A program made the position numbers and the translations under genes. The notes below the pieces were generated by a model that worked only from the letters and a program-made list of their open reading frames with translations, did not search any database and was not told where the DNA came from. Below are positions 1-23,081 of a stretch of DNA of 23,081 nucleotides, one piece after another (the stretch's first letter is position 1; each line of letters opens with the position of its first letter). The DNA is from a virus: positions 1 to 23,081 of IMG/VR virus record IMGVR_UViG_3300025072_000053; one strand, 5' to 3'.

Positions 1-465
1 GATTTTAATATTTTCGGATTTAAACCTGATAGACGTGATGTATATAAAATTTTAGATTTAGCTGTATGGGATGGTTCACAATTTGATTCTAGAACACAAG
101 GAAGACAAAAGGATTACTTTCTTGTAAGAGATACAGGAATGGTGCATTTTTCTAGATATTTCTTTTTACCAGCTAGATTTAGAGGATTTAATACTCCTAC
201 ATTTAGATTTGGTGGTGGAGAATTTATTACGCCTGTAAGAATAAAATATTTATATGGTAGAAATTTAGCGACAGATGTGCGTGAAGGTGGTTTTGTTACA
301 GAACTAGCTAAAAAAATGGCTGCAATAGAAATACTTAAAAATTCTGATTTTGGTAATCTTACTGTAAGTGGTATGGATAGAGTACCTTTACAACAGAAAA
401 TTCAATTGTTTACCACTGAAATTATAGAAGGAATAGAATCACTGAAAGGTGTGGAGATATTTTAA
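1..465 (+). CDS. Virion protein, C-terminal part (5' end outside window)
   Basis: The reading frame is open from the first base and ends with TAA at 463-465, so at least 154 residues are visible and the true start lies upstream. An internal ATG at 139 is not a convincing start because the same frame continues unbroken before it. The protein is rich in aromatic residues and arginine (for example RYFFLPARFRGF), and its last 50 residues look helical. I recognise no named family. It overlaps the next gene by one base (TAATG) and sits just before the tail terminator and tail tube genes, so a neck, head-completion or tail-related virion role is inferred from position only. Confidence 0.6.
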   Translation, partial: DFNIFGFKPDRRDVYKILDLAVWDGSQFDSRTQGRQKDYFLVRDTGMVHFSRYFFLPARFRGFNTPTFRFGGGEFITPVRIKYLYGRNLATDVREGGFVTELAKKMAAIEILKNSDFGNLTVSGMDRVPLQQKIQLFTTEIIEGIESLKGVEIF

Positions 466-914
466 TGGCTAATGAACCAATGGCTGTAAAGGATTTTATT
501 ACAGATTTAGAAAGTCAATGGACTTATAGTAATGTTACTGATGCAACTAAGAAACCGGGGTTTATTGAAGTTACTGGAACTAGTGAACCAATGCGTTATA
601 ATCTTAATGTAAATGATCAGATTATAGCTAGACCTTCGGGACCAGCTGTACAGGAAACACCAATAGGAAATTGGAAATTTGGAAATAGAATATACAGTGT
701 AACTTTAGAAGTATATACACAAACAGATAGGCAGAGATTATATAATTTAATGAAAGAAATAAGAAGAGTTTGTCACGCTAGAATGCATAGTTTAACTAAT
801 TTTCAAAGAATACAATTCATGGATTTTAATGAATTAACTAATGCACAAGCTAATGTATGGGCAGGAACTGTACAAGTTCAGTTAGTTAACAATGCAATTA
901 CTTTAGAAACATAG
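465..914 (+). CDS. Putative tail terminator / tail completion protein
   Basis: A 149-residue protein whose ATG overlaps the previous stop (TAATG), implying translational coupling. It has the size and alternating strand/helix pattern of phage tail terminator proteins (HK97 gp10 / lambda gpU-like): a central strand region, a helix near residues 85-105 (RQRLYNLMKEIRRVCHARM), then a C-terminal strand (ANVWAGTVQVQLV). In siphophages and myophages this protein caps the tail tube and joins it to the head, and its gene usually lies immediately before the tail tube gene, as here. The assignment rests on synteny and predicted fold, not a diagnostic motif. A neck protein is the main alternative. Confidence 0.45.
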   Translation: MANEPMAVKDFITDLESQWTYSNVTDATKKPGFIEVTGTSEPMRYNLNVNDQIIARPSGPAVQETPIGNWKFGNRIYSVTLEVYTQTDRQRLYNLMKEIRRVCHARMHSLTNFQRIQFMDFNELTNAQANVWAGTVQVQLVNNAITLET

Positions 915-922
915 GGTTTTTT

Positions 923-944
923 AGTATAATATAAATAAGGAGAA
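923..944 (+). promoter_or_regulatory. Putative phage promoter (copy 1) running into the RBS of the tail tube gene
   Basis: The 36-base gap before the tail tube gene holds TATAAT at 925-930 and, overlapping it, TATAAATA at 930-937, the form of T4-type late promoters. AAGGAG follows. The block AGTATAATA, then AAATAAGGAGAA, recurs before the small membrane gene at 18273 with a single one-base gap. I see no good -35 box. Being in one of the few real intergenic gaps, before a gene that must be strongly expressed, it is a plausible late promoter; transcription itself is inferred. Confidence 0.5.
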
Positions 945-950
945 AATATA

Positions 951-2729
951 ATGGCAGTATTTCGTAGTGATCAATCACAATTAACATATGCAATGGAGAC
1001 AGCTCCGGGAGGAGATGTTGAACTTAATAATGGAACTAGAGAATCCTCACCTTTTTATGCACTGTTAACAGCAGATCATAATGCAGGTGTTACACAACTT
1101 ACTTATGATGGGGGTAATGCTACACTTACTGTAGGTGATATGGTAAGAATTGGCAATATTAGTCAAAGTGCTGATGCCAGTAGTTCCACAGTGGTACCAT
1201 TTGAACTCAGAAGAGTAGAGTATTTTACTCAATCTGGAAGTGATGGTTCTTATACAGGTACTATTTATCTAGATAGACCAATAGGTTTTAAACATCTTAA
1301 TAACTCATATATAGTAGAAATAGATAGTGCAGGTACTACATCACAATATAAATTTATTACAGAAGTACCGGGAGTATATGAATCAATTACAGTACCAGAT
1401 TTAGCTCCTACTTATGAACCTAGATACTTTCTAGGAGTAGGACAAAAAAGAGATTGGACTAAAATGTATATTGGAGCTCAGTCTTTTGCTGGATCTTTAC
1501 CGGGATTTATACCTTTAAATGGTAAACCATTGAGATGGTCAATTGGTAAAGTATATGATGTACCAGCAGCTACAAGTGGTAGTAATCCCACTGTGGATGC
1601 AACAGCAAGTAAAGGGGATGTATATCTTACTCTTTCATCATCACATGGTGTAACAGATAATGATTATATAGTTATTTATAGTCAAGCTTCTACAAGATAT
1701 ACAAGTGGTACATCTGATACAGAGGTTGAAATACATAAAGTAATAGATGTTCCTACTACTAATGTAGTAAGGTTAGATAAACCATTACGTTTTGATCATG
1801 CATCAGGTAGTTTTGTAGCAGAGGTTGCAGATGATGTTGTAGTAACACATCATATAGAGGAGACTGTATTACTAGATACGATGTCATGGCATTTACATAT
1901 GAAAGATAGTGGTGAAACAGCTCCTAATGATTTTGATAGACGATATGTAGGAGGATTTGTAGGATCTACTACACTATCAGCAGATGAGGGTGGTATGTTA
2001 ATGACTAGTTGGGATACAGTTACATTCCAAGATATGGTTCATAATCAAGAACAAATATCCACATCTGATGTAAATCCGGGATCTGAAGCAGCTTTAACTA
2101 CTTTATATTCAGGAGATTCAATGTCAGCGGGTATGCCTAGATTTACTGAAATGGCAGATATTGGTACTTCAGATATATCGTTCCCAACTACAGAACCATA
2201 TTATTTCTCTCAAGGGTCTGTGAAATTTATGGGACAAGAATTTGCTAGAGTTAGAAATTTTAATTTAAGTATTTCAAATGGTGAAGAAGCTAGATACTAC
2301 ATATCACCTAGATTTGGTAGACACAGAGGACCTACTGAAATAAGAGAGGGTAGAAGAAGTTATGGTATGTCTTGTACTTTAGCATTACCAGATTCAGCAG
2401 CTTCTGCTAGTGCCGTTGGTAGAAATACAGCTACAGAATTTTTCAAACAATTACTTATAGAAGGTAATTATGGAAGTGGAATGGAAGGATTTAATATTGA
2501 ACTTACATTTACTAGGGGTACTAATGATAGTATACAGATATTAATTCCTGCTGATTATACTTCAGGGGATGAGACAACTGGTGCCGAACCGGGATTAGGA
2601 AAAAATGGAGCATTTTTAACAAGTGCTGCTCACCCAATAGGAGCTGATCCTATAATACAAGTATCAGCAGAATTTCAAATTAGAAATCTAAAAATAGTAG
2701 TAACAGATACAGAACGTGTATACACATAA
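951..2729 (+). CDS. Major tail tube protein, enlarged, with duplicated beta modules
   Basis: A 592-residue protein starting at an ATG preceded by AAGGAG. The region around residues 420-590 (GSVKFMGQEFARVRNF onward, with a GRRSYGM segment) resembles the Phage_tube_2 class of tail tube proteins. Tail tubes are usually 150-350 residues, so this one is long. The extra length includes two related beta modules at about residues 46-124 and 217-293. Each ends in a matching pattern, LDRPIGFKHLNNSYIVEI and LDKPLRFDHASGSFVAEV, showing an internal duplication. Such modules probably decorate the outside of the tube. Its position between the tail terminator and the frameshifted chaperone genes is canonical. 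It carries five Pro-Gly dipeptides, all encoded CCG GGA. Confidence 0.75.
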   Translation: MAVFRSDQSQLTYAMETAPGGDVELNNGTRESSPFYALLTADHNAGVTQLTYDGGNATLTVGDMVRIGNISQSADASSSTVVPFELRRVEYFTQSGSDGSYTGTIYLDRPIGFKHLNNSYIVEIDSAGTTSQYKFITEVPGVYESITVPDLAPTYEPRYFLGVGQKRDWTKMYIGAQSFAGSLPGFIPLNGKPLRWSIGKVYDVPAATSGSNPTVDATASKGDVYLTLSSSHGVTDNDYIVIYSQASTRYTSGTSDTEVEIHKVIDVPTTNVVRLDKPLRFDHASGSFVAEVADDVVVTHHIEETVLLDTMSWHLHMKDSGETAPNDFDRRYVGGFVGSTTLSADEGGMLMTSWDTVTFQDMVHNQEQISTSDVNPGSEAALTTLYSGDSMSAGMPRFTEMADIGTSDISFPTTEPYYFSQGSVKFMGQEFARVRNFNLSISNGEEARYYISPRFGRHRGPTEIREGRRSYGMSCTLALPDSAASASAVGRNTATEFFKQLLIEGNYGSGMEGFNIELTFTRGTNDSIQILIPADYTSGDETTGAEPGLGKNGAFLTSAAHPIGADPIIQVSAEFQIRNLKIVVTDTERVYT

Positions 2730-2738
2730 GGAGGATAA

Positions 2739-3116
2739 ATGACAACTATAAAGGATAGTCCAGTACAGAAAAGTTTTGATGTAAATAAATATAAAATAGT
2801 AGAAGATAATCAAATTTATACTGTAAAAATTAATGATGATGAATTCGATGTAACAGTCAAACCAGTAACATGGCAATTAAAAAATGAGTTAATAGCTAAA
2901 TGTATGAAGTTTGACCAAGATGGAAGTTCTTCATTTGATGGTGGTACTTATATAAAAGAAGTTTTAAAAGCAATAATTATTGAAGCCCCTTGGGGTAAAA
3001 CAGATAATAAATTTCTAGATTCTATAAATTCAGATTTAGGAGCTGCTTTAGAAAAATTAGTTCCATCAGCTTTTGATACTAATTTCAATGAGGTAGATGT
3101 AGTAAAAAAAGAATAG
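2739..3116 (+). CDS. Tail assembly chaperone, upstream frame (lambda gpG-like)
   Basis: A 125-residue protein starting at an ATG after AAGGAGG. It has the make-up of a phage tail assembly chaperone: a short beta N-terminus (residues 20-45, with FDVTVKPVTWQLKNELIAKC) followed by a helical body. These proteins bind the tape measure and tube subunits during tail assembly and are absent from the virion. The gene lies between tail tube and tape measure, the standard place. Its last codons run through seven A residues and then TAG, and a -1 slip there would join it to the downstream frame to make a 208-residue product. Identification rests on synteny plus the frameshift signal. Confidence 0.7.
   Translation: MTTIKDSPVQKSFDVNKYKIVEDNQIYTVKINDDEFDVTVKPVTWQLKNELIAKCMKFDQDGSSSFDGGTYIKEVLKAIIIEAPWGKTDNKFLDSINSDLGAALEKLVPSAFDTNFNEVDVVKKE
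3091..3116 (+). promoter_or_regulatory. Programmed -1 ribosomal frameshift site
   Basis: The zero frame reads GTA AAA AAA GAA TAG, so A AAA AAA at 3104-3110 is a perfect X XXY YYZ heptamer, followed by G as in the A AAA AAG sites used in bacteria. An SD-like AGGT at 3091-3094 lies nine bases upstream, the arrangement that stimulates slippage in dnaX. The -1 frame is open from here to 3364, continuing RIDRFLRGVN into the next protein. Stop TAG is four bases past the heptamer. Confidence 0.75.
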
Positions 3117-3139
3117 ATCGTTTTCTTAGAGGAGTAAAT

Positions 3140-3364
3140 GTGGCAACAAAGGAAGCGATCTTATATACTCATTATGTAACTACGTTGGCACTTTTAGATA
3201 TGGGATTAAGTTATACAGAAATAAAAAATTTATCAAATACAGAAACTGTTATGCTTACAGCAATGCAGGCATCATTAAATGAATATAGAAATGAACAAAT
3301 GGAAAGAAATTCTAAACATCAAGAAGCTGCACAAGCTCATCCAACATTTCCTAGGAGGTATTAG
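3140..3364 (+). CDS. Tail assembly chaperone, downstream frame (lambda gpT-like; made as a GT fusion)
   Basis: This frame is -1 relative to the upstream chaperone and is open from the slippery site (first shifted codon AGA at 3110) to TAG at 3362-3364, giving 84 residues in a fusion of 208. The portion from GTG 3140 is 74 residues and mostly helical, ending in a polar tail (QEAAQAHPTFPRRY). By analogy with lambda gpGT, the fused part would bind tail tube subunits. AGAGGAG at 3128-3134 sits five bases before GTG 3140, so separate translation of this part cannot be excluded. The tape measure gene begins three bases after its stop. Confidence 0.65.
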   Translation: MATKEAILYTHYVTTLALLDMGLSYTEIKNLSNTETVMLTAMQASLNEYRNEQMERNSKHQEAAQAHPTFPRRY

Positions 3365-3366
3365 AT

Positions 3367-4407
3367 ATGCCTGAACAGTATGATGTACGTTTTTCTATTC
3401 TTGAAGATGCTTCCAGAACTGCTGCTGCACAACAGGGAGTAGTTGGTGGTATTAGTGCGGGACAGGAAAAAGCAGAAAAAACAAGAGAAGTTAGAGATAG
3501 ACAAACTAGTTTAGCAAGACTATTAGGTTTACAATTTACTTTAGCAGCATTACTTAAAAACTCACAAATTTTCACTGGAACTATTGGTGGTATATTTCAA
3601 ATTCTAGGAGGTTTAATTGATGTTACATTAGCTCCTTTCATGCCTTTGATTGTAGCTCTTATGACTAAACTTGCAGGTATTATTCCGAGATGGTCTGCAT
3701 ATACTCAAGCAGTGATGCCAGCAGTCATAGAAAAAATAACTAATGTAGGTCAAGGGATAGCCCAGATAGTTTCTGGTGTTAATCAATTTGCCAGAAAACC
3801 ATTTAATTTGTTTGATAAAGATGGAATGTCTGCAGATGGAAGACTTAGTTTATCAGATATATTTAGAGGTTTAGGTACTGCAGTATTAGGAGCTGGAGTA
3901 TTTAATGCTTTAAGAACTGGGTCTACTGGTATAGTATCTACAGCAGTAAGAAGTTTAATGAGTGGAACTATAGGAAGCTTAAGTAAATTTTTAAGATTCG
4001 GAGGTTGGGTAGCATTAATTTTTGAAAGCGTTAATATAATGAATATATTTAAAACATCAGGAATAAGAGCAGCTTTAATAAGAGTAGCAGATACAATTCT
4101 AATGACTTTCTTCTCAACACTTGGGGGTTTAGTTACAGGTGCAGCCGCTTCTTTTATTGGTTTAGGACCATTAGGTTTCTTAGCTGGTGCTGGAATTACA
4201 GGAGCAGCATATTCTAAATACGCTTCACCAAAATTTACTGGAATGATGGGAGGCGGTGGAGGTGGAGAGAGACCTAGATCCGAATTATATACAGAGTATA
4301 TGGAGAATAGGACTTATCCCACATCTGAATCTGCAAGTTTTATTGGATCACAAAATATAACTGCATTTGACTATGATAGAGAATTACCAAGAATAGGATC
4401 TAGATAG
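3367..4407 (+). CDS. Tape measure protein (short)
   Basis: A 346-residue protein with AGGAGG before its ATG. It follows the frameshifted chaperone directly, the hallmark position of the tape measure. Hydrophobic glycine/alanine-rich segments lie at about residues 55-105, 165-185, 210-225 and 245-285, as expected of a protein that lines the tube and is ejected into the host membrane. The N-terminal 50 residues are helical and charged. It is short for the family, whose members usually exceed 600 residues. At about 0.15 nm of tail per residue it would specify a tail near 50 nm, if it is the only length determinant. A short stretch, DKDGMSADGRLSL at 150-162, vaguely resembles a calcium loop. Confidence 0.65.
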   Translation: MPEQYDVRFSILEDASRTAAAQQGVVGGISAGQEKAEKTREVRDRQTSLARLLGLQFTLAALLKNSQIFTGTIGGIFQILGGLIDVTLAPFMPLIVALMTKLAGIIPRWSAYTQAVMPAVIEKITNVGQGIAQIVSGVNQFARKPFNLFDKDGMSADGRLSLSDIFRGLGTAVLGAGVFNALRTGSTGIVSTAVRSLMSGTIGSLSKFLRFGGWVALIFESVNIMNIFKTSGIRAALIRVADTILMTFFSTLGGLVTGAAASFIGLGPLGFLAGAGITGAAYSKYASPKFTGMMGGGGGGERPRSELYTEYMENRTYPTSESASFIGSQNITAFDYDRELPRIGSR

Positions 4408-4416
4408 GAGGGATTA

Positions 4417-4878
4417 ATGGCATTAGCAATATGTTTATATGATGGTGGATCAGTGAGATATGCATTAAAAGCAGATTCTTTTTCAATAAATTATGTAAAA
4501 ACTCCAGTACAAATTCCTCTACCCGGTGGTGGAAATCCTAAAATTTTAGATTTTGGACAAATTAGACCTACAGTTACAATTTCAGGTTTAGTAGATACCA
4601 CAGCTCCGGGAAGCTCAGAAAATGTTTCTGGACCTACTAGAAATAGTAGCACCGTATATACTGTACCAAGTAAAAAAAATTTAGAGGATTTTGTAACTAG
4701 TAAATTTTATGATGAAAATAGTGCGAAAGTAGAACTACTTTTATCAGATGGGACTGCAACTCCAGTATCAGCATATGAAGTGGCTATACAACAATGTAGA
4801 TTTGATTTAGCTCCAGCCACAGAAGATAGATTTAGTTTCACATTAGTATGTGTTGGTAGAAAGAGGGCTGATTCGTAA
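4417..4878 (+). CDS. Putative distal tail / baseplate protein
   Basis: A 153-residue, strand-rich protein with GGAGGG just before its ATG. Segments such as ILDFGQIRPTVTISGLVD and the C-terminal FDLAPATEDRFSFTLVCVG suggest a tail-tube-like or distal tail fold that caps the tube tip and docks the hub. I do not recognise a named family with certainty; the call comes from its place between tape measure and hub/fibre genes. It overlaps the next gene by one base (TAATG). Its two Pro-Gly pairs use CCC GGT and CCG GGA. Confidence 0.45.
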   Translation: MALAICLYDGGSVRYALKADSFSINYVKTPVQIPLPGGGNPKILDFGQIRPTVTISGLVDTTAPGSSENVSGPTRNSSTVYTVPSKKNLEDFVTSKFYDENSAKVELLLSDGTATPVSAYEVAIQQCRFDLAPATEDRFSFTLVCVGRKRADS

Positions 4879-8123: not shown

Positions 8124-8538
8124 AGTTGTTAGATTGCGTAAAAACAATCCTTTCATGTCTACAGCAAAGATCGCAAAACAAGTTGGAGTGACTAGGGTAT
8201 ATGCTCATCAAGTATTAAAAAAGAATGATTTAGAAACTAATCCACCCAAACCTAAAAAAGTGGTATACTGTAAAGTATGTGGAGAAATAACGAACACAAG
8301 TCGAAGTATTCATAAGGGAGAATGCACCTTTAAATGGAACTATTTAAAATTAACATGTTCTTGGTGTTCAGTTCCTTTCTACAGACATAAAAAGATAATA
8401 AAGCAAAATTACAGGTTAAAACTAAAAAATGTATACTGCAGCAGACAATGTTTTCAAACAGCAAGGACACAAAAGATTGGAAATAAACAACGAACTTATA
8501 TTGAAGTGGGAACCGAAAGTCTACAAAATGTTGGCTAA
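8107..8538 (+). CDS. Helix-turn-helix and zinc-binding protein (putative regulator)
   Basis: A 143-residue basic protein whose ATG lies inside the end of the fibre gene. Residues 17-39 (STAKIAKQVGVTRVYAHQVL) form a clear helix-turn-helix. Two cysteine clusters follow: CKVC with a later HKGEC, and CSWC with a later YCSRQC, each able to bind zinc. This suggests sequence-specific nucleic acid binding. Because it precedes and overlaps a sigma-like gene, a role in phage transcription control is plausible. An HNH-type or other homing protein is less likely, since I see no catalytic His-Asn-His pattern. Confidence 0.6.
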   Translation: MKAKNKVVRLRKNNPFMSTAKIAKQVGVTRVYAHQVLKKNDLETNPPKPKKVVYCKVCGEITNTSRSIHKGECTFKWNYLKLTCSWCSVPFYRHKKIIKQNYRLKLKNVYCSRQCFQTARTQKIGNKQRTYIEVGTESLQNVG

Positions 8539-9028
8539 TGTATATGTTTATGGATATGATAAAGAAGATTTAGCACAAGAATTACGATTAGTTATATGTA
8601 AAGCTGCTAAACTTTATAACCCTAATAAGAAAACCATCTTTCATACTTATCTACATACTGCAATGGCTAACACTTTAAAAACTCTATGGATGAAGGCAGC
8701 TAAAAGATTACAAAGTTATAGTCTTGACAAAGAATTTGAAACAAACGATAATAATGATTATCATTATTCATTAAATGATTTTACAAAACAAATAGATATA
8801 AATTTATTAGACTTAGAAGTTGATGATTTATTAGATTCTTTAGGGTTAGATAAAGGTGAAAAACAATTTCTGATCGATAAATTTAAAAATCGTACAATGA
8901 GAGATATAGAAAGTAATTTAAAAAAAATCAAAGATACAGAAATAGTAAATAAAGAAGAGGTGCCGAAAACATATTCGGTGTACAAAGTAAAGAAATCTTT
9001 GAGAAATAAGTTTAGAGAGAATGATTAG
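8477..9028 (+). CDS. Phage RNA polymerase sigma factor, sigma-70 region 2 type
   Basis: A protein of about 183 residues. The segment DKEDLAQELRLVICKAAKLY followed by NPNKKTIFHTYL matches sigma-70 region 2, which binds the polymerase clamp and recognises the -10 element. The C-terminal part (LDKGEKQFLIDKF, then KVKKSLRNKF at the end) looks like a divergent region 4 with an insertion. I prefer TTG 8477 as start because AAGGA at 8463-8467 precedes it by nine bases; ATG 8429 would add 16 residues but has a weak RBS and a longer overlap, and ATG 8528 would cut into region 2. The product would redirect host RNA polymerase, as T4 gp55 does for late genes. Confidence 0.7.
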   Translation: MEINNELILKWEPKVYKMLANVYVYGYDKEDLAQELRLVICKAAKLYNPNKKTIFHTYLHTAMANTLKTLWMKAAKRLQSYSLDKEFETNDNNDYHYSLNDFTKQIDINLLDLEVDDLLDSLGLDKGEKQFLIDKFKNRTMRDIESNLKKIKDTEIVNKEEVPKTYSVYKVKKSLRNKFREND

Positions 9029-9030: not shown

Positions 9031-10272
9031 TTGGAAAATTTTAATTTTATAGAATCTGGAATTATATTTGGATTATGTAATCCAAGTAATTTTAAGGATT
9101 TTACATATTTACCTAAAGATTTTGCTGAACATGGTGAAACATATAAGTTCATTCAAGATTATTTAGATAATTATTCTGAATTCCCTACTGTAGAAGTTTT
9201 AGTAGAGAAATTTGATTCATTAAAAATCGAAGCACAATCAATAAATTTCAATTATGCTTTATCCCAATTTACTAACCAAGTAATGTTTAGAAATATAGTT
9301 AATGCTTTCTCTAGTAGTAAACCCTTATTACAAGATAATCCTAAAAAAGCATTAGGATTAATTATGGATAAGTTAAATGATGTAGAAATATTATATGATT
9401 CTGATGTTAATCAATATGACTCTGGAAATTTAGATAGATATGAGGAATGGAAACGTAGAAGTAAGATTAGAAAAATGGGGGATGGTATTATTGGGATAAG
9501 AACACCATTTAAAATGATTAATTCTACAGGAATAGGATGGCAACCGGGAGATTTAATCACTACATATGCAAGACCAACTGTAGGGAAAACATGGTTATGT
9601 TGTAAATTAGCTGCAGATGCGATAAAAAGTGGTTATAAAACCTTATTAGTATCTACAGAAATGCCTAAGACTGCTATAAGTTTACGAATGGATGTATTAT
9701 TAGGTCATATGATGAACTATAAATTATCTCATAGTGCACTTAGGAATGGTAAAGATATAGATGAAGAAGAATATAAAAAGTTTTTAGAAGAAACAGATTT
9801 CAAAAATCTATTAATTTGTGATCATATAAGTGGGGAAGATAGTATATCATTACCAAGTATTACAAATTTGGTAAGAAAGTATTCCCCCGATCTATTGATA
9901 GTAGATGGAGTATATTTAATATCTACATATGATAAAAATAGAGCAGCTTGGGAACAATCACATTCATTATTCTATGGTTTAAAAACTCTAGCTCTATCAA
10001 CTAATACTGCTATAATAGCCTCAACTCAAGCAACAAGAGAAGCTGCAGCTAATATGTTTACTCAACCAACAGCTGGTCAAGTAGCATTTGGGGATGCTTT
10101 AATTAGAGCTTCTGATGTAGCGTTATCAATGTGTATGATAGAAGATCAACCAAAGAAAAGAGAAATAGCTTTCCAAAAATATAGAGATGGAGATTTACAA
10201 TCATTAGATTGTGAGTTTATTTGGGATGTTGATAAAGGGAGAATAGAAGAAGATGATGACTCATTATTCTAG
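9031..10272 (+). CDS. dnaB: DnaB-like replicative DNA helicase
   Basis: A 413-residue RecA-fold ATPase of the DnaB family that unwinds DNA at the phage fork. Walker A is ARPTVGKT at residues 180-187 (K186), with Ala in place of the usual first Gly. Walker B is DLLIVDG at 287-293. STEMPK after the first strand and STQATREAAAN later fit DnaB motifs. The roughly 130-residue N-terminal part is helical. A TGA at 9022 blocks any upstream start in this frame, so TTG 9031 after AGAGAGA is the start. It overlaps the next gene by 20 bases, and its primase partner follows shortly. Confidence 0.85.
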   Translation: MENFNFIESGIIFGLCNPSNFKDFTYLPKDFAEHGETYKFIQDYLDNYSEFPTVEVLVEKFDSLKIEAQSINFNYALSQFTNQVMFRNIVNAFSSSKPLLQDNPKKALGLIMDKLNDVEILYDSDVNQYDSGNLDRYEEWKRRSKIRKMGDGIIGIRTPFKMINSTGIGWQPGDLITTYARPTVGKTWLCCKLAADAIKSGYKTLLVSTEMPKTAISLRMDVLLGHMMNYKLSHSALRNGKDIDEEEYKKFLEETDFKNLLICDHISGEDSISLPSITNLVRKYSPDLLIVDGVYLISTYDKNRAAWEQSHSLFYGLKTLALSTNTAIIASTQATREAAANMFTQPTAGQVAFGDALIRASDVALSMCMIEDQPKKREIAFQKYRDGDLQSLDCEFIWDVDKGRIEEDDDSLF

Positions 10273-15366: not shown

Positions 15367-15592
15367 GATAGGTGTGAAATTAGGGTTTACTTTTAGAGTA
15401 GGTCCATTAGATACTAATCAATATGCAAGAATGGATATGGAAATTCATGATCTTGATACTGAAATTTCTATAGAAGAACAATTGGAGGAAGCTGGGTTAA
15501 CTATAGATAAAGCTTACCAAGTAGTTCATGATAAAGTGGATAATGGAATCAGGGAAATATTTAAAAAAGGTAAGAAAAAAAATGGAAAGTGA
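15359..15592 (+). CDS. Hypothetical small protein
   Basis: A 77-residue protein preceded by GGAGGG. A strand-forming start (KIGVKLGFTFRVG) and an acidic middle (DLDTEISIEEQLEEAG) are followed by a helix and a lysine-rich tail. No family is recognised. The start looks like proteins that use the plain name 'gamma-type' phage accessory factors only in shape, so no function is proposed. It ends 11 bases inside the next gene. Confidence 0.5.
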   Translation: MAKIGVKLGFTFRVGPLDTNQYARMDMEIHDLDTEISIEEQLEEAGLTIDKAYQVVHDKVDNGIREIFKKGKKKNGK

Positions 15593-15851
15593 GTATGTTA
15601 GAGCTATTGTCATGGAAAATATTCTGGCTGAAAGAGAATTTAATACTGAAAAAGTTAGAAATTTTAGAAATAAATCAGATGTAAATGATTTTTGGACAGT
15701 TATTTTAGCGGAAGAATTGGGAGAAATAGCAAAAAAAGTGCGTAAAAATAATACTGCTGGAATGTATAATAGATTGATACAGTGTGCTGGTATTTGCATG
15801 GCATGGGCAGAGGCTTACCATGAAGATAAAATTAAGAAAGAGGATAAATAA
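15582..15851 (+). CDS. MazG-like putative NTP pyrophosphohydrolase
   Basis: About 89 residues from ATG 15582, chosen over ATG 15528 because it avoids a long overlap and fits the domain. The segment AEELGEIAKKVRKNN followed by QCAGICMAWAEAY matches small all-alpha MazG-like proteins, where the EExGE acids bind magnesium. The second acidic motif is less clear (AEAY rather than ExxD), so activity is uncertain. In marine phages MazG-like enzymes are thought to adjust nucleotide pools or alarmone levels. It precedes the recA-like gene by three bases. Confidence 0.5.
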   Translation: MESEYVRAIVMENILAEREFNTEKVRNFRNKSDVNDFWTVILAEELGEIAKKVRKNNTAGMYNRLIQCAGICMAWAEAYHEDKIKKEDK

Positions 15852-15854
15852 TTA

Positions 15855-16856
15855 ATGAAAGAAACTGCAGAATCAATATTTAATGAATTATTAAATGATA
15901 AAAAATTAGCTACTAAAAGAGGAGACGATGAAAGTTTTGCTTATGGTAGAATACCATTTAATATTCCACAATTAGATAGAATAACAGCTGGTGGTATACC
16001 TAGAAAAAGATTTACATTGCTTTTTGGTGGGTGGTCATCAGGTAAATCTTATATAGCATCTCAACTTTGTAAATCTGTACAAGAAGATGGGGGAGTTTCA
16101 GTTTGGATAGACTTAGAAAAATCATGGGATCCTGCATGGATGGAAAAAGTTGGTATAGATATAACTAAAATAATAGTAGCTGACCCCGCAACTGCAGAAG
16201 AAGCATTTAAGATTGCTCAAAAGAGTTTAAGAACTGGAGTAGATTTAGTAGTGTTAGATAGTGTAGCAGGAATAATACCTGCAGATATATTTAATAACGA
16301 AAAAGGTATTGACTATAGTCCTATAGCATGGCAATCAAGAACATGGAATCAAATGTTAATTAGATTACTTCCTGATTTAACATATGGAAGTTCATTGGTT
16401 GCTATTAATCAAACTAGAGGAGCTATGGGACCAATCACTGCAATGGAAACTATGCCCGGTGGGGAAGGACAAAAGTTCTTTTCACATTGTTGTATGCAAG
16501 TTTCCAAAGGTGGTTGGTTAAATGAACCAGCATCTTCAACTAACAGAGTGGGTTTTGAAATCAAAGTAAAACTATTAAAAGATAAATTTGGTGGGGAGAG
16601 ATGGGAAGAAGTAGTTATACCATTTCGTATAGAAGGTGGAGTAGATGTTGTGGAGACTTACGTTAGATTAGGATTAGAATATGGAATAATTAAACAAACA
16701 GGAGCTTGGTATACCTACGAAAAAATGCCTAATAAAGTAACAGGTATTAACAAAGTAGTAGACTGGTTTAAAGAAAACCCTGAAGATTACGAGAGGTTTA
16801 AGAATGAGACCGAAGAGTTTTACACCACAAGAGAATCTAATAGCCAAAGTTCTTGA
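15855..16856 (+). CDS. uvsX: RecA/UvsX-like recombinase
   Basis: A 333-residue RecA-family protein that would pair homologous strands in phage recombination and recombination-primed replication. Walker A is GGWSSGKS at residues 58-65, the catalytic glutamate is E88 in WIDLEKSWDP, Walker B is VVLDS at 132-136 (D135), and AINQTR at 183-188 matches the RecA INQ motif that senses nucleotide and DNA. Core length fits the RecA fold, with a short acidic C-terminus. AGAGG lies upstream of ATG 15855. Its last 53 bases also encode the start of the next gene. Confidence 0.88.
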   Translation: MKETAESIFNELLNDKKLATKRGDDESFAYGRIPFNIPQLDRITAGGIPRKRFTLLFGGWSSGKSYIASQLCKSVQEDGGVSVWIDLEKSWDPAWMEKVGIDITKIIVADPATAEEAFKIAQKSLRTGVDLVVLDSVAGIIPADIFNNEKGIDYSPIAWQSRTWNQMLIRLLPDLTYGSSLVAINQTRGAMGPITAMETMPGGEGQKFFSHCCMQVSKGGWLNEPASSTNRVGFEIKVKLLKDKFGGERWEEVVIPFRIEGGVDVVETYVRLGLEYGIIKQTGAWYTYEKMPNKVTGINKVVDWFKENPEDYERFKNETEEFYTTRESNSQSS

Positions 16857-17094
16857 AGAAACAGGACTTCGTTATGCTAGACAAGTACCTATAGGAAATT
16901 ATACTGTAGACTTTCTTATAACAGAAATGAATGTTATAATAGAAGCAGATGGTCCTTTTGGACATTTAGCAAAAAGAGATATTAAAAGAGATGACGACTT
17001 AATAAACATGGGTTTTACAGAAGTTTGGCATCTTAAAGAGAAAACATATAAAGATATAAAGGAGAGGTTATGGCAGGAATTGAAGCTATATTAA
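16804..17094 (+). CDS. DUF559/Vsr-like PD-(D/E)XK endonuclease
   Basis: A 96-residue nuclease. SFTPQENLIAKVL at residues 5-17 and RQVPIGNYTVDFLI, with IIEADGPFGH, form the DUF559/Vsr-like pattern: E10, D36, E47, D49 and H54 are the likely catalytic residues. Vsr nicks DNA at T:G mismatches within the Dcm context; DUF559 proteins are often of unknown substrate. GAGAGG before ATG 16804 supports this start even though it lies 53 bases inside the recA-like gene. Being sandwiched between RecA-like and Cas4-like genes, it probably nicks or trims DNA during recombination. Confidence 0.7.
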   Translation: MRPKSFTPQENLIAKVLEETGLRYARQVPIGNYTVDFLITEMNVIIEADGPFGHLAKRDIKRDDDLINMGFTEVWHLKEKTYKDIKERLWQELKLY

Positions 17095-17756
17095 GCAAAG
17101 GAAATAATACAAAAAAATCTAGAAAAAGAACTAAAAATCAAGATAGATGGCTATTAAAATCTATTGATAACGTATTAAGTAGAAAAAATAGTCCCCCAAC
17201 TAAAGGGAAATTTTACCCATCTTTATTTGGTAATCCTTGTGATAAGTATTTATATCTTGCATATCGTGGTCAATTAGATTGGGATACTATAGAGGCGAGA
17301 GTACAACGTATATTTGATCATGGTGGTACCTTTGAATCACGTATGAAAAAGTATTTAAAGAAAGCTGAACTTTATATAGATGATGAAATTAGTGTGAAAT
17401 TAGAAGCTCCTCCAATATCTGGTAGGATGGACTTTTTAATAAAGCATGAGATACATGGAGAAACCCCTTTAGAATTAAAAACTATTAAGAGTGAAGATTT
17501 TAAAGAGTTAAAAGAAACACCAAAAAGTGAGCATTTAATTCAATTACAGATTTATTTAAATATTAAAAAATATGATTATGGGGTTGTGTTGTATGAAAAT
17601 AAAAATGATCAAAATTTAAAAGCTTTTCAAGTAGAAAGAAATGAAAAAACTTGGGAAAATATTTTAGAAAGATGTGATAGAATAATGAATATGACTATAG
17701 AACCAGAACAATGTACTGGTATGTGGTATTGTAAATGTAAAAACAGGAGGCAGTAA
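17070..17756 (+). CDS. Cas4-like PD-(D/E)XK exonuclease with probable Fe-S cluster
   Basis: A 228-residue nuclease of the Cas4/RecB family. H84, D121 in ISGRMDFLI, the E135-x-K137 pair in LELKT and Q160 within QLQIYL form the nuclease core. Four cysteines, C57 near the N-terminus and C215, C221 and C223 at the C-terminus, have the layout that binds a [4Fe-4S] cluster in Cas4 and AddB. No CRISPR array or cas1/cas2 is nearby, so this is the phage recombination/end-processing type. GGAGAGG precedes ATG 17070. The next gene starts by TAATG overlap. Confidence 0.78.
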   Translation: MAGIEAILSKGNNTKKSRKRTKNQDRWLLKSIDNVLSRKNSPPTKGKFYPSLFGNPCDKYLYLAYRGQLDWDTIEARVQRIFDHGGTFESRMKKYLKKAELYIDDEISVKLEAPPISGRMDFLIKHEIHGETPLELKTIKSEDFKELKETPKSEHLIQLQIYLNIKKYDYGVVLYENKNDQNLKAFQVERNEKTWENILERCDRIMNMTIEPEQCTGMWYCKCKNRRQ

Positions 17757-18238
17757 TGGAAAAAAGATGGAGTTATCAAGATTCAATTAGGTTAGCTAAT
17801 CAAGCTTTAAAAGAAGCTGGTATTCCTAAAGTAATAATGGATGGTAATGCTGATGCTGAATTAAATTTTATTGATGTACTTCACGCATCTCCAGAACAGT
17901 TAGAAAAGTACCTAGTAATATATGGTGGATTTAAAGGACAACTTGAGCAACGGGTATCTGATACAGAAACTAAAAGAGCAGCAATGGAAGCCCAATTCAC
18001 TGAAAATTATAATATTGCTTATGCAGACTTACTGAGTCAAGTTGAAGGAAAGAAACCAACTAAAGATGAGTGTAGAGGGATCATAATGGGATCTATCGAA
18101 CCTTTAGCTAAATTACAGAGAGAATTGATAGATGTCACTGCAATAATGAATAAATTAGAGTCACAACTTAGGTTATATACCCAATGTTGGGCTACTGTTT
18201 CTAGAATTGTTGCGTTAAGGACTAAAGGATTTGATTAA
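17756..18238 (+). CDS. Hypothetical helical protein linked to the Cas4-like gene
   Basis: A 160-residue protein, almost wholly helical. Residues 60-90 (QLEQRVSDTETKRAAMEAQF) and 115-140 look like coiled coil. I recognise no family. GGAGG precedes ATG 17756, which overlaps the previous stop, so it is translationally coupled to the nuclease. It could be a mediator or scaffold for the recombination proteins; this is inference only. After it comes one of the few clear intergenic gaps. Confidence 0.55.
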   Translation: MEKRWSYQDSIRLANQALKEAGIPKVIMDGNADAELNFIDVLHASPEQLEKYLVIYGGFKGQLEQRVSDTETKRAAMEAQFTENYNIAYADLLSQVEGKKPTKDECRGIIMGSIEPLAKLQRELIDVTAIMNKLESQLRLYTQCWATVSRIVALRTKGFD

Positions 18239-18242
18239 TTTG

Positions 18243-18264
18243 TAGTATAATAAAATAAGGAGAA
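18243..18264 (+). promoter_or_regulatory. Putative phage promoter (copy 2) before the membrane cassette
   Basis: The 34-base gap after the helical protein contains TATAAT at 18246-18251 and AAGGAG. The block from 18243 to 18264 is identical to 922-944 upstream of the tail tube gene except for one missing T (equivalent to 932). No convincing -35 box is visible. Its recurrence at two transcription-unit borders argues for a shared promoter, probably late. Confidence 0.5.
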
Positions 18265-18272
18265 TTTCTACT

Positions 18273-18422
18273 ATGGGAAAATTTAGACCCCAAATTTTTT
18301 TAGCAATAGCTTGTTTAACTACATTATCTGTAGTTGGGTTATTCCATGGTATGCCAGAAGTATCTACTGCAACAATTGGTGGAATCATAGCTTTAGGCAT
18401 GAAAATTTTAGAGGGGGAATAA
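18273..18422 (+). CDS. Small membrane protein, two predicted TM helices (holin-like)
   Basis: A 49-residue protein from ATG 18273, with AAGGAG eight bases or so upstream. Two hydrophobic segments, about residues 8-24 (FLAIACLTTLSVVGLF) and 31-45 (STATIGGIIALGMKI), are joined by a short loop, with a positive N-terminus. Size and topology suit a small holin, but no endolysin is found in this window, so the role remains open. It is the first gene after the repeated promoter motif. Confidence 0.6.
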   Translation: MGKFRPQIFLAIACLTTLSVVGLFHGMPEVSTATIGGIIALGMKILEGE

Positions 18423-18444
18423 AAACGAGTGGAAGAAATGACTA

Positions 18445-18549
18445 GTGAAAAAAGAGAAGATACTTACAAAACATATTTTAATAATTACCACTATTTTAAC
18501 AATAATATTAATTGCGGTAATAATAATAGGAGAAATATATAGTAGATGA
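18445..18549 (+). CDS. Very small single-TM protein
   Basis: A 34-residue peptide from GTG 18445 with GGAAG ten bases upstream. A lysine-rich start (KKEKILTKH) precedes one long hydrophobic helix (ILIITTILTIILIAVIII). It ends with TGA overlapping the ATG of the next gene (ATGA), which argues for a genuine coupled gene. Function unknown; an alternative reading of the same stretch gives a polar asparagine-rich peptide and is less likely. Confidence 0.45.
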   Translation: MKKEKILTKHILIITTILTIILIAVIIIGEIYSR

Positions 18550-19811
18550 AGGCGAAACTAGTTAAAATATTAGATATATTTTTATATATAATTACATTTA
18601 TTACCGTAATCTGTGGAGCATTTGTATTAAGTGTCACTTCAATAAATCCAGTCAATTTATGGTGGGCGATTGCTCCAATCCAAACTCCATTAGGAATAAT
18701 TACTTATTCTGGTGTTATGGAATACCTTACATTTTTACAAACATGGTATTGGTATAGTATTGGCATTTCAGCCTTTTCCATTGTTTTTGGATATGCAATA
18801 CATGTTAGATCACTAAAGGCTCTATATGAGCTTATAAAAGCCTCTCCAAAGGCTCTTTTGTATTCCCCAATAACTTTTTATAAAACTTTAAAGAACTTTA
18901 GGGATTGGTTGTTTAAGAAAATAGAATATCTGAATGGCGAGTCTGCTAAATGGAGACGTTTCTTTACAATAGCTAAGTCACCTTATTCCTTACTTAGGTC
19001 ACTGGGTCTTAATCCACAAATGGCTATAGCTGTATTGGGTGTTGGTTCTACAACAGCAGTTGGTGTTGGTGTAGCAGAAGTAATGGAAATAAGAAGTTTT
19101 GCTGGTGGTAGTGCGGGTATATATGCCGCACCTAGTGAATACCCAGATGAAGAGCTTGAAAAACGTATGGCATGGAGAAAAGACAATCCCTCAGATAATA
19201 CGCTTAGAATTGTGCTTGGTTCTACTCCTGTAGAACTTATCAGTATCTCAGATGTGTCTGTAGGTACAGCTTATACTGGTTCAGCATTACCTAGTGGAAA
19301 AGTTGAGGCTATTTTAATTGAAGGCAAGCTGGGGATGAGTGCCAGACTTGAAATCGGAGAATTTATATTTGAAAGGAATACTTGTAAAACATTAACATTA
19401 AGTGATATTAATGCCCATAAAGTAGTGATTCAACATAACGCATCTGATGGACAAAGTATTTCTCAAACAGTAGGATCTAATCGTGATTTACAAATTTCAG
19501 GTGGTAATTTTATGGCTAAAGAATTATCCACTTCTGGAGGTACTTATGATAGAATCTGGTTGGATACAGGTAGCTTAACTTCTACAAATGCCAAGATTAA
19601 TAAACTTAATCTTTCTAATATTGTTAGTAAAGGTGGAACATGTGTAATTAGACAAGCTAATATAGGTCTATTAACGATACAATACAACACAACAGGTAAT
19701 GACCAAGACTTTGCGACTAAAGAGTTTCAAGTACAATCCTCAACAAAAGCGAGTATTTGGGAAGTAAATAACAATATAGAGGTTCTTTTAACAGAACCAG
19801 CTACACAATAA
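18546..19811 (+). CDS. Membrane-anchored beta-rich protein of unknown function
   Basis: A 421-residue protein with an unusual layout. Three hydrophobic segments are visible: about residues 9-31, 67-88 and 159-180, with a basic helical stretch between the last two. From about 220 to 421 it is strand-rich and repetitive, with short turns such as KLNLSNIV and IRQANIGLLTIQYN, like a beta-solenoid. Three segments would place the beta part on one side of the inner membrane or, in a virion, on its surface. No known family is recognised. It starts by ATGA overlap with the tiny TM gene, and AGGAG lies 13 bases upstream. Possible roles include host surface modification, exclusion of other phages, or part of the ejection apparatus; none is shown. 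Confidence 0.65.
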   Translation: MKAKLVKILDIFLYIITFITVICGAFVLSVTSINPVNLWWAIAPIQTPLGIITYSGVMEYLTFLQTWYWYSIGISAFSIVFGYAIHVRSLKALYELIKASPKALLYSPITFYKTLKNFRDWLFKKIEYLNGESAKWRRFFTIAKSPYSLLRSLGLNPQMAIAVLGVGSTTAVGVGVAEVMEIRSFAGGSAGIYAAPSEYPDEELEKRMAWRKDNPSDNTLRIVLGSTPVELISISDVSVGTAYTGSALPSGKVEAILIEGKLGMSARLEIGEFIFERNTCKTLTLSDINAHKVVIQHNASDGQSISQTVGSNRDLQISGGNFMAKELSTSGGTYDRIWLDTGSLTSTNAKINKLNLSNIVSKGGTCVIRQANIGLLTIQYNTTGNDQDFATKEFQVQSSTKASIWEVNNNIEVLLTEPATQ

Positions 19812-19812
19812 G

Positions 19813-19914
19813 GTGAATAATAGATTTGATGAATACATTAAATTAATGCTTAAAATAGCTTTATTAGCTAGTTGTGTTTGGGTAGTATTAATCATAAGAG
19901 AAGTAATGTTTTGA
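19813..19914 (+). CDS. Very small single-TM protein
   Basis: A 33-residue peptide from GTG 19813, two bases after the previous stop. A polar N-terminus (NNRFDEYIK) is followed by one hydrophobic helix (LKIALLASCVWVVLII) and ends RE-VMF. An in-frame ATG at 19846 would leave only the helix. The RBS is weak (ATAAG), so translation would depend on coupling to the upstream gene. Confidence 0.35.
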   Translation: MNNRFDEYIKLMLKIALLASCVWVVLIIREVMF

Positions 19915-19926
19915 AAGAGGGAACAT

Positions 19927-20085
19927 ATGAGAAGAGGCATAATAAAGACGTTACCAGCGTTAACTTCCGCTCTTGTAGCGGTTGGAGCAACTTTACTATT
20001 TGTACATAGAGAAAGAATAGAAAATAAAGTAGCTTCTAATTTAAGTTTAAGACAAATAAAAAAAGAGGGAATTCCTTTACAGTAA
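19927..20085 (+). CDS. Small membrane-anchored protein
   Basis: A 52-residue protein from ATG 19927 with GAGGGA ten bases upstream. A positive start (MRRGIIK) and one hydrophobic segment (ALTSALVAVGATLLFV, residues 11-26) precede a charged C-terminal helix (HRERIENK). This resembles a type II anchored peptide with the short tail outside or, less likely, a spanin fragment. It is the last of the membrane cassette and is followed four bases later by the RuvC-like gene. Confidence 0.5.
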   Translation: MRRGIIKTLPALTSALVAVGATLLFVHRERIENKVASNLSLRQIKKEGIPLQ

Positions 20086-20089
20086 AGAA

Positions 20090-20563
20090 ATGAGATATTT
20101 AGGACTAGATACGTCTAGTAAGGCTATTCATGGCGTTATATTAGACGAACAAGAAAATTTGCTATCCACCCATAAAGTTATATGCAACACTAAAAATCCT
20201 TTTAAAGAAAGATTCTCAGAGTTATTAACAAATTTTATGAATGAATTGTGGGATATTGATGCAGTAACTTTAGATTTAGCTTTAATAGAAGAACCAATAT
20301 TCGCACAGAATAGAAATGTAGTACGTACTCTTTCAGAAGTAGTGGGGGCTGTATGGGCTATATTAAGTATAGCAGATGTTCCAACTAAATTAGTGGATAA
20401 TGGGACTTGGAAGAAAAATATCATAGGAAATGGAAAATCTAAAAAATGTGATATAATGAAATATGCAACAGAAAAGTGGGGAGATAAATTCCCCGAACAA
20501 GATTATGCTGATTCAGCATGTATAGCTTTATATGGATTGAAGGAGAGTGATAATGTCATATAG
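20090..20563 (+). CDS. ruvC: RuvC-like Holliday junction resolvase
   Basis: A 157-residue RNase H-fold nuclease of the usual RuvC length. GLDTS at residues 5-9 gives D7, LIEEPIF at 65-71 gives E67 or E68, and DYADSACIALYG at 138-149 gives D138 and D141, completing the four-acid metal site. It would cut Holliday junctions left by the RecA-like protein so that concatemers can be packaged, which suits its place just before the terminase genes. The RBS is weak. It overlaps the next gene by 11 bases. Confidence 0.85.
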   Translation: MRYLGLDTSSKAIHGVILDEQENLLSTHKVICNTKNPFKERFSELLTNFMNELWDIDAVTLDLALIEEPIFAQNRNVVRTLSEVVGAVWAILSIADVPTKLVDNGTWKKNIIGNGKSKKCDIMKYATEKWGDKFPEQDYADSACIALYGLKESDNVI

Positions 20564-21026
20564 CAAAGTTAATAAAAATCCTAAATTTTATTTTATGGAA
20601 AAGAAAAAGAATAAGGTAGAGAAACCTAAGGATAGTTTACCAAAAGGTATGACTAAAAAGAAATTTAAAGATAAATATGCAAAGGTTGTATGGTGTGATT
20701 ATTATGATTGTATACATAATGAAAGACCAGAAGGGATGAGTAGGAAAGTTGGGACTATAATGGGTAATCCTAACTACGAATCTGTAGGAACCAAGGATGA
20801 ATCTTTTAAAGGTGTATGTAATAAAGAGGAGATTGGAATAAGATTTAAAGTTATAAAAACTTCAAGTGGTGCAAAACATAAGGTTCCTGAATGTTTTAAT
20901 GCTACGTCAAATAAAACAGGACATATGGATTTTAGTAAACTTTTACAACCTGATGGAAGTCCATTTGGGGGAAGTATTGAATCAGGAAATGCTGATACAG
21001 GGTATTCAAATGTGGGGTATCTCTAA
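20553..21026 (+). CDS. Hypothetical Cys-containing protein
   Basis: About 157 residues from ATG 20553, chosen because GGAGAG lies seven bases upstream; GTG 20547 adds only two residues. The N-terminal third is lysine-rich. Cysteines in WCDYYDC, GVC and PEC could form a zinc or other metal site. The C-terminal 40 residues are glycine/serine-rich and probably disordered. No family is recognised. It ends in a TAATG overlap with the small terminase gene, suggesting a packaging-related or structural role by position. Confidence 0.5.
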   Translation: MSYSKVNKNPKFYFMEKKKNKVEKPKDSLPKGMTKKKFKDKYAKVVWCDYYDCIHNERPEGMSRKVGTIMGNPNYESVGTKDESFKGVCNKEEIGIRFKVIKTSSGAKHKVPECFNATSNKTGHMDFSKLLQPDGSPFGGSIESGNADTGYSNVGYL

Positions 21027-21529
21027 TGCCAAAAAAATTTTCTAGAAATGTGAGGGAACGAGGATTAAAATTATATTTGGATGATAGTTATTCAGCGAGA
21101 GAGATTGCAGAACAATTATCACAAGAATTTAGGACAGTTGTTACCACCCCTACTATTTATCATTGGGTTAGAGTTTTTGATTGGAAGAGGGTGAAGAAAG
21201 AAACCCAAACTAAATCTTTAGAGAAAATGCAAGAAAATGAATCATCAAGATTGGCTAGGATACAAGAAGAACATCAGTCAGCTTATGAAGCTATTAGAAG
21301 TAAAGCGGGTTCAGAATTAAACTCTTTAAATTTTGATAGAGCTTTTGATGCAGTTAAAGCTTTAGATATTGGAATACAGGGGGAGAGAAAAGTAGCAGAA
21401 GGGTTGATAAATATACAATTCATACAAGATGTGGTAAATATTCTTGTGGATGAAATAGATGATACGGATTTAATTAAAAGAATAGCTGGTAGATTGAAGG
21501 TATTAATGGCTTCAAAAGAAGATGAGTAA
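21026..21529 (+). CDS. terS: Terminase small subunit
   Basis: A 167-residue protein with an N-terminal helix-turn-helix (YSAREIAEQLSQEF through TTPTIYHWVRVFDWKRV, residues 20-55), a central helical oligomerisation region (65-125) and a C-terminal helix. This is the layout of phage small terminases, which recognise the packaging site and regulate the motor. It lies directly before, and overlaps, the large terminase gene, which confirms the call. Confidence 0.8.
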   Translation: MPKKFSRNVRERGLKLYLDDSYSAREIAEQLSQEFRTVVTTPTIYHWVRVFDWKRVKKETQTKSLEKMQENESSRLARIQEEHQSAYEAIRSKAGSELNSLNFDRAFDAVKALDIGIQGERKVAEGLINIQFIQDVVNILVDEIDDTDLIKRIAGRLKVLMASKEDE

Positions 21530-23081
21530 TGAATTAACTACATATAATAAGGCATTTGAAATGCTTGCTGATAGATTAGTGACGAGCAGAAAATATTCTA
21601 TCGGAAGTTTTTGGGAATTTGTTAGGGATGTGTGGTCTTTAGGTTTTGAACATCCTGAATATTTTAAAGCTTGGCATGTAGGAAAACTATGTGAAGAAGT
21701 TGAAGAATGTATGGAAAATAAAATGAATTATCTCGCTATATTACCTAGAGCACATTTTAAATCTACAATTTTAGGACATGCATTTAGTATATGGAGAACT
21801 TTAAAAACTCCGGGAAGCTGTAATATTTTATATTTATCTTATAGCGATACTATGGCAAAGTATCATATCTCTGAAATTAACAAAGAAGTTAATCGTAATC
21901 CAATTTTAAAACAATTAATGACAAATAAAGCTCCAAAAGCGGACTTTACTTTTAGATACTCAACAGGAAACGAAGGAACTGCAGAAATATTACATGGTGG
22001 GTTATTTTCTTTCAAACGTGGTATGCACGTTAATGGAGCATTAATTGCTGATGACATATTGAAAGACCCTGAAAGTCCATTGGCAGTAGGTCAAATGGCG
22101 AAGATTGAGGATCACTTCCTTACAGAATCCTTATTTATTCCTAATCAAGGAATTCCTGTGGTGGTTGTAGGTACACCTATGATACCCGGAGATTTATTAA
22201 CAGTACTAGAAAAAGATGATAGATTTAAAACTACTAAGCTTCCTGCATTAGATCCAGAACCGGGAAGAAGAGTGTTAATGCCAGAAGTATATAATGAAAA
22301 ATGGTTATTAGAACAACAAAAAGCAAAGCCTAAATCCTTTGCATCAGAATTTTTATTACAACCACATTTTAATACTGAGGCATATTTTAATACTGAAGAT
22401 ATTGAAAAGTGTGAAGATGCAAATTTAAGATCATTACCCACTACTATGAAACATGATTTTAGTGATGATGAAGATATATTTGCTGGGTTCGATGTAGGTA
22501 AGAAAAGACATCCATCTCATTTAGTTGTGTTTAAAAGAAAAGGTGAACGTATAGAACAAATTCATCAATCATGGTTAGATGGTTGGGATTATTCACAACA
22601 GGTTGTATTTTTAAATGAAGCGGCAGAAAATTTTGGATTATCAAAAGGATATATAGATAATACCAGAGGTGAGTTAGAGGATAGGGGATTACATAGATTA
22701 TGGTATCCATTATCATTTTCTTTAAAATCCAAGAATAATATGGCACATATTTTTGAAGAGTATGTGCATTCAGGTAATTTACATTTAATAAGAGATCATA
22801 GACAAAGACAGCAGATATTATCAGTTAGTAATGAATTAAAAGCTCCTGAAACCCCTATGGGGCATGGGGATGCTTTCTTTTCTATTGCTATGGCTTTGCA
22901 AGCTGCGTATGAAACTGGGGTATATAGAATGCAGACTGTAGCTAATTTACAGGATATTGCTGCAGATGTTGACCCATCATTAAAAAATGTTGGAAATTTA
23001 GACAAAAATAAACCTGATGTACTACTTGATTTTGATCAAGACAAGTATAATAATAACATGGAGTCGCCAAACCCCTCATGC
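21522..23081 (+). CDS. terL: Terminase large subunit, packaging ATPase-nuclease (3' end outside window)
   Basis: The frame is open from ATG 21522 to the last base, 520 residues. The ATPase has a variant Walker A, PRAHFKST at residues 75-82, a Walker B LIADD at 174-178, and coupling motif VGTP at 216-219. The RNase H-like nuclease follows, with D324 in AGFDVGKKRHPSH, D379 in YIDNTRG and D450 in GHGDAFFS. All catalytic parts are therefore inside the window, and only a C-terminal tail is missing. It cuts and pumps concatemeric DNA into the prohead. The start overlaps the small terminase stop by eight bases. Three Pro-Gly pairs are encoded with CCG or CCC. Confidence 0.93.
   Translation, partial: MSNELTTYNKAFEMLADRLVTSRKYSIGSFWEFVRDVWSLGFEHPEYFKAWHVGKLCEEVEECMENKMNYLAILPRAHFKSTILGHAFSIWRTLKTPGSCNILYLSYSDTMAKYHISEINKEVNRNPILKQLMTNKAPKADFTFRYSTGNEGTAEILHGGLFSFKRGMHVNGALIADDILKDPESPLAVGQMAKIEDHFLTESLFIPNQGIPVVVVGTPMIPGDLLTVLEKDDRFKTTKLPALDPEPGRRVLMPEVYNEKWLLEQQKAKPKSFASEFLLQPHFNTEAYFNTEDIEKCEDANLRSLPTTMKHDFSDDEDIFAGFDVGKKRHPSHLVVFKRKGERIEQIHQSWLDGWDYSQQVVFLNEAAENFGLSKGYIDNTRGELEDRGLHRLWYPLSFSLKSKNNMAHIFEEYVHSGNLHLIRDHRQRQQILSVSNELKAPETPMGHGDAFFSIAMALQAAYETGVYRMQTVANLQDIAADVDPSLKNVGNLDKNKPDVLLDFDQDKYNNNMESPNPSC

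What the first reader, a model, noticed from the sequence alone, without database searches (positions are those of the whole stretch)
1..23081. CCWGG appears completely absent, and every Pro-Gly pair is recoded to avoid it
Reading the window by eye I found no CCAGG or CCTGG. With G and C each about one sixth of bases, chance alone predicts around ten. More telling, all 13 Pro-Gly dipeptides (one in the terminator, five in the tail tube, two in the small tail protein, one each in helicase and RecA, three in TerL) use CCG GG (10) or CCC GG (3), although proline elsewhere is nearly always CCA or CCT. The excess of CCSGG rules out simple lack of GC. This is what strong counter-selection against an EcoRII/Dcm-type CCWGG target would give. 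A link to the Vsr-like gene at 16804 is possible, because Vsr acts on Dcm-site mismatches.
Basis: partly seen in the sequence, partly recalled or inferred. Interest (0 to 1): 0.75.

Follow-up and report, generated by a model that had tools for sequence, protein, structure and literature searches.

The report
Phage family with forbidden restriction words
This piece of an uncultivated tailed phage, and over a hundred related fragments, completely lack several short DNA words that bacterial restriction enzymes cut, rewriting codons and even giving up an amino-acid pair to do so; the strategy is known, but here it is unusually strict and combines several words at once.

Summary
The window has 0 CCWGG (expected 15.4 by Markov model, 14.2±2.0 by codon-preserving shuffle), and all 13 Pro-Gly pairs use CCG or CCC. 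GGCC and GCGC are also absent. In 145 related, partly overlapping virus loci (1.63 Mb) CCWGG is 0 against 1429 expected. The window's own clade also has no GGCC, GCGC, CGWCG or GRCGYC. Other branches forbid other sets (GATC, GGWCC, CGCG, CCGG, CASTG); one 82.8-kb relative lacks eight or more words in the 80 kb read. Relatives that do carry CCWGG code Pro-Gly normally, so this is not a codon-pair rule. Half of the lost sites changed at the central A/T, which cytosine deamination cannot do. Trp-Pro, whose codons always spell GGCC, is missing from GGCC-free members. Almost no member encodes a matching methyltransferase. Best explanation: purifying selection by orthodox Type II restriction enzymes of an unidentified bacterial host. 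The Vsr link fails: the gene is a DUF559 nuclease that is not Vsr by profile and is equally present in CCWGG-containing relatives. The strategy is known; strictness, breadth and clade-specific combinations are extreme. Host and enzymes remain untested.

The parts
1..23081 (.). Whole window: 0 CCWGG, 0 GGCC, 0 GCGC on both strands (also 0 CGWCG and 0 GRCGYC, where expectation is below 1)
555..559 (+).
1005..2593 (+). Five CCGGG at Pro-Gly (1005, 1368, 1500, 2076, 2589) in ORF 951-2729 (tail tube-like; PHROG 290, minor tail protein)
4522..4610 (+). CCCGG 4522 and CCGGG 4606 at Pro-Gly in ORF 4417-4878
9544..9548 (+). CCGGG at Pro-Gly in DnaB-like helicase (9031-10272)
16455..16459 (+). CCCGG at Pro-Gly in RecA/UvsX-like recombinase (15855-16856)
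21810..22264 (+). CCGGG 21810, CCCGG 22185, CCGGG 22260 at Pro-Gly in TerL (21522 to window end)
16804..17094 (+).

Best explanation
The window belongs to a family of probably lytic tailed phages of bacteria that evade host restriction by having no sites. Their hosts carry several orthodox Type II restriction enzymes (for this clade cutting CCWGG, GGCC, GCGC, CGWCG and GRCGYC). Incoming genomes with even one site are destroyed, so every new site is purged, usually by synonymous change (Pro-Gly forced to CCG/CCC) and where no synonym exists by giving up the dipeptide (Trp-Pro, which always spells GGCC). Shown: the absences, their clade-specific sets, the codon and dipeptide effects, the near lack of viral methyltransferases. 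Inferred: that host restriction enzymes are the agent, that they cut at single sites, and who the host is.
For: Window counts and codon shuffle. Close clade, 290 kb: CCWGG 0/205, GGCC 0/172, GCGC 0/149, CGWCG 0/41. Contigs found through the capsid gene, 305 kb close: 0/281, 0/187, 0/181, 0/96; 359 kb farther: CCWGG 0/360; GRCGYC 0/56 close. All CCWGG-free loci: 0/1429. An unrestricted k-mer scan found essentially only palindromes at 4-6 bases. Sets change along the tail-tube tree: minimum 7 changes for CCWGG, 10 for GATC. Pro-Gly: 406 of 406 CCS in CCWGG-free contigs, 198 of 215 CCW in relatives with CCWGG. CCWGG sites of relatives aligned to CCWGG-free ones: 0 of 69 kept, other motifs 29-35% kept. 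GATC at 9% divergence: 0 of 15 kept, other palindromes 60-82% kept. Trp-Pro 0 vs 26.8, Pro-Trp 24. C5 MTase in 1 of 50 related records, N6/N4 and D12 MTases in 0 of 50, none in the window. No tyrosine integrase in 15 records, matching the finding that complete elimination marks non-temperate phages and orthodox Type II sites (PMC6286503).
Against: No host was found: two scans of about 85,000 GTDB genomes for tail-tube and capsid relatives confirmed none, so no host restriction or modification gene has been shown. Contigs are fragments and share ancestry, so expected counts are not independent trials. Trp-Pro is also low in unrelated viruses (74 vs 133), so the fair expectation in the clade is nearer 15 than 27. 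One third of random viral contigs also eliminate one to three words, so the phenomenon is not unique.
Confidence: 0.88

Rival explanations
1. Mutational loss: host C5 methyltransferases methylate CCWGG, GGCC and GCGC in viral DNA, and 5-methylcytosine deaminates to T, eroding the sites without restriction.
For: CCWGG, GGCC and GCGC are classic 5-methylcytosine targets (general knowledge); 12 inner C>T and 6 inner G>A changes among 69 lost sites.
Against: 34 of the changes at 69 lost sites are W>S at the centre, which deamination cannot cause; Pro is kept and recoded to CCS; GATC is eliminated by changes at all four positions; mutation gives reduction, not 0 of 1429.
Confidence: 0.03
2. A general codon-pair or translational rule disfavours CCW-GGN, so the absence is about codons rather than DNA cutting.
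For: All Pro-Gly pairs in the window are recoded.
Against: Relatives with CCWGG use CCA/CCT before Gly in 92% of cases, unrelated viruses in 78%; CCWGG is absent in every frame; GGCC and GCGC are absent too.
Confidence: 0.01
3. The phage's own nuclease (the DUF559 gene or the Cas4-like exonuclease) cuts host DNA at these words and the phage avoids them to protect itself.
For: A DUF559 nuclease-like gene is conserved beside RecA in the family.
Against: The gene is equally present in CCWGG-containing relatives, one gene would have to account for five or more unrelated words, and word sets differ between relatives.
Confidence: 0.04
4. Artefact of library preparation or assembly, for instance digestion of the DNA before sequencing.
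For: All contigs are metagenome assemblies.
Against: The same samples give contigs with different sets: 3300046467 gives L038 (0 CCWGG) and L043 (34), 3300029787 gives L029 (0) and L061 (11), 3300030110 gives L030 (0) and L066 (19).
Confidence: 0.01

Closest known systems
Restriction-site avoidance by lytic dsDNA phages (Rusinov et al. 2018, PMC6286503)
   Same: Near-complete elimination of orthodox Type II palindromes, no tyrosine integrase found, almost no self-methylation.
   Different: There elimination (CB<0.1) holds for 7.1% of Type II phage-site pairs; here 99 of 100 long loci eliminate at least one word, mean 2.46, against about 0.5 in random viral contigs. Host unknown here.
EcoRII (Type IIE) and single-site CCWGG isoschizomers (such as MvaI or BstNI)
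   Same: Recognition word CCWGG.
   Different: EcoRII needs several sites for efficient cleavage (PMC4081073); the all-or-none pattern here fits enzymes that cut single sites. No enzyme was identified.
Vsr mismatch endonuclease (PF03852)
   Same: Possibly the same broad nuclease fold as DUF559/MTES_1575 (recalled, not tested).
   Different: No Vsr profile match in the window; best solved relative is 3hrl, 'endonuclease-like protein'.

Membership tests
Type II restriction-site avoidance | Word far below composition and codon expectation | tested here: met
Type II restriction-site avoidance | Avoided words are palindromic Type II targets | tested here: met
   Unrestricted 4-6-mer scan gives essentially only palindromes; CCWGG is the EcoRII/MvaI word; other assignments from general knowledge
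Type II restriction-site avoidance | Host encodes the cognate restriction enzyme | not testable with these tools
   No host found in GTDB genomes
Type II restriction-site avoidance | Virus does not protect itself with cognate methyltransferases | tested here: met
   1 C5 MTase in 50 related records, none of N6/N4 or D12 type; none in the window fragment
Type II restriction-site avoidance | Non-temperate lifestyle (typical, not strictly defining) | tested here: inconclusive
   No tyrosine integrase in 15 records, but records may be incomplete and other lysogeny genes were not sought
Vsr mismatch endonuclease | Match to Vsr profile PF03852 | tested here: not met
   DUF559 instead
EcoRII-type (IIE) restriction pressure | Isolated single sites tolerated | tested here: inconclusive
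   178 of 201 loci have 0 sites and only one has a single site, which speaks against tolerance; but loci overlap and contigs are fragments

The most novel reading that the evidence does not exclude
The set of forbidden words is a heritable barcode of the restriction repertoire of a host lineage that carries five to ten or more single-site Type II systems at once; the phage family tracks changes in this repertoire by purging whole words within a few percent of divergence, down to the loss of an amino-acid pair from its proteome, so the word set alone could assign hosts.
Probability: 0.45. Interest if true: 0.65.

Novelty: new member of a known kind. Interest (0 to 1): 0.48.

Why it matters
It gives a large uncultivated phage family in which restriction evasion by site loss is close to absolute, involves several words at once and switches between close relatives. 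That makes the rate and protein cost of evading restriction measurable, predicts the methylation motifs of an unknown host, and offers a practical way to match phages with hosts through methylome data.

Tried and rejected
Vsr link: rejected. Codon-pair effect: rejected by relatives and by unrelated viruses. Deamination: rejected by W>S changes and by GATC. Sequencing artefact: rejected by same-sample contrasts. Host search through GTDB with tail tube and capsid: nothing. Host clues from cultured phages: TerL and RecA hits are only 22-31% identical, tail tube none. tRNA genes: none in 47 loci. Sample origin through papers: one hit, not useful. Kin genomes of the window cannot be drawn for a virus record. 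CCCGGG, absent in the first set, was 15/59 in the second set, so I do not count it as forbidden.

Full report
What was checked. The window is a 23,081-base IMG/VR virus record, a fragment of a tailed phage with tail genes, a DnaB-like helicase, primase, family-A polymerase, RecA/UvsX, a Cas4-like exonuclease, a RuvC-like resolvase and TerL running off the 3' end. Shine-Dalgarno-like stretches precede many starts, and its RecA and a sigma-70 region-2 match fit a bacterial host.

The observation. CCWGG is 0 and CCSGG 13. Permuting synonymous codons with the proteins kept gives 14.2±2.0 CCWGG and 2.9 CCSGG; no shuffle of 2000 reached zero CCWGG. All 13 Pro-Gly pairs are CCG or CCC although 90% of other prolines are CCA/CCT. 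GGCC and GCGC are also 0, each with a shuffle fraction of 0.002 or less, and no shuffle had all three at zero.

Relatives. A tail-tube search found 27 related loci, a profile search 76, and a capsid search 401 candidates of which 80 were kept. Pooled over 290 kb of the close clade, CCWGG is 0/205, GGCC 0/172, GCGC 0/149, CGWCG 0/41. The set found through the capsid gene repeats this: 0/281, 0/187, 0/181, 0/96 in 305 kb, and CCWGG 0/360 in 359 kb of farther relatives; GRCGYC is 0/56 and AACGTT 2/64 in the close set. Loci of the two sets can come from the same virus populations, so they are not strictly independent. Over all CCWGG-free loci the count is 0 against 1429 expected (these loci were chosen for having none, so the figure states the size of the absence, not a test). 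Unrelated viral contigs fetched by an arbitrary 16-mer give CCWGG 653/963 and GCGC 911/950, so the expectation model is roughly sound.

Clade-specific sets. Nearly every contig eliminates one to five of the 4- and 5-base words, in different combinations: CCWGG in 61, GATC 38, GGCC 32, GCGC 29, GGWCC 13, CGCG 10, CCGG 6, CASTG 5. Over 80 kb one relative (G046) has 0 CCWGG/74, CASTG/59, CGCG/37, RGATCY/28, GGYRCC/27, CYCGRG/24, GRGCYC/24, CCATGG/19. On the tail-tube tree the states change at least 7 times for CCWGG and 10 for GATC. In 100 family loci the mean number of eliminated words is 2.46 with one locus at zero, against about 0.5 and two thirds at zero in random contigs; that control list wrongly contained the window, which only raises it.

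Why selection on DNA. In CCWGG-free contigs all 406 Pro-Gly pairs are CCS; in relatives with CCWGG 92% are CCW; in unrelated viruses 78%. CCWGG sites of relatives aligned to CCWGG-free genomes: 0 of 69 kept, other motifs 29-35% kept, and 34 changes are W>S at the centre. Between relatives 9% apart, 0 of 15 GATC sites are kept while 60-82% of other palindromes are. Trp-Pro always spells GGCC: 0 seen against 26.8 expected in GGCC-free close contigs, with Pro-Trp at 24; unrelated viruses reach 0.56 of expectation, so about 15 would be a fair baseline.

No self-protection. Among 50 related records one C5 methyltransferase was found (G025), and no N6/N4 or D12 type; none in the window. No tyrosine integrase in 15 records. 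This agrees with the survey in which elimination concerns orthodox Type II sites and non-temperate phages (PMC6286503).

Single-site cutting (inference). 178 of 201 loci have no CCWGG and only one has a single site; the other 22 counts are mostly six or more. EcoRII needs several sites for efficient cleavage (PMC4081073), which would leave isolated sites tolerable. Fragments and overlapping loci limit this argument.

The Vsr idea. The ORF at 16804 matches DUF559 (E 6e-12) and MTES_1575, has a PDB relative 3hrl, and has no Vsr match. It is present in all 15 loci holding both neighbours, three of them CCWGG-containing. It is a core gene of unknown target.

What is missing. No host genome in GTDB was found to hold a relative and cultured phages are only remotely similar. 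The enzyme side is therefore inferred.

Noticed in passing
G005 (record of L012; L101:1-4833): All 18 GATC of this 29.4-kb contig lie in its first 4.8 kb, the remaining 24.6 kb have none; the patch is most like GATC-containing relatives L142/L145, so recent recombination or an assembly chimera.
   Followed up: partly
G025 (L047, L083): An 81.6-kb relative carries a C5 cytosine methyltransferase next to its family-A polymerase; its specificity is unknown and the genome still lacks CCWGG and GATC and has one GGCC.
   Followed up: partly
proteins of G025, G046 and G040 (alignment A2): A NadA (quinolinate synthase) gene and ribonucleotide reductase genes occur among these relatives; NadA is an unusual phage-borne metabolic gene.
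   Followed up: no
window 16804-17094: Small DUF559 nuclease-like gene overlapping the end of recA and followed by a Cas4-like exonuclease; the three occur together in the family, suggesting a role in recombination.
   Followed up: partly
window 8429-9028: Sigma-70 region-2-like protein, conserved widely in the family, possibly a phage sigma factor.
   Followed up: no
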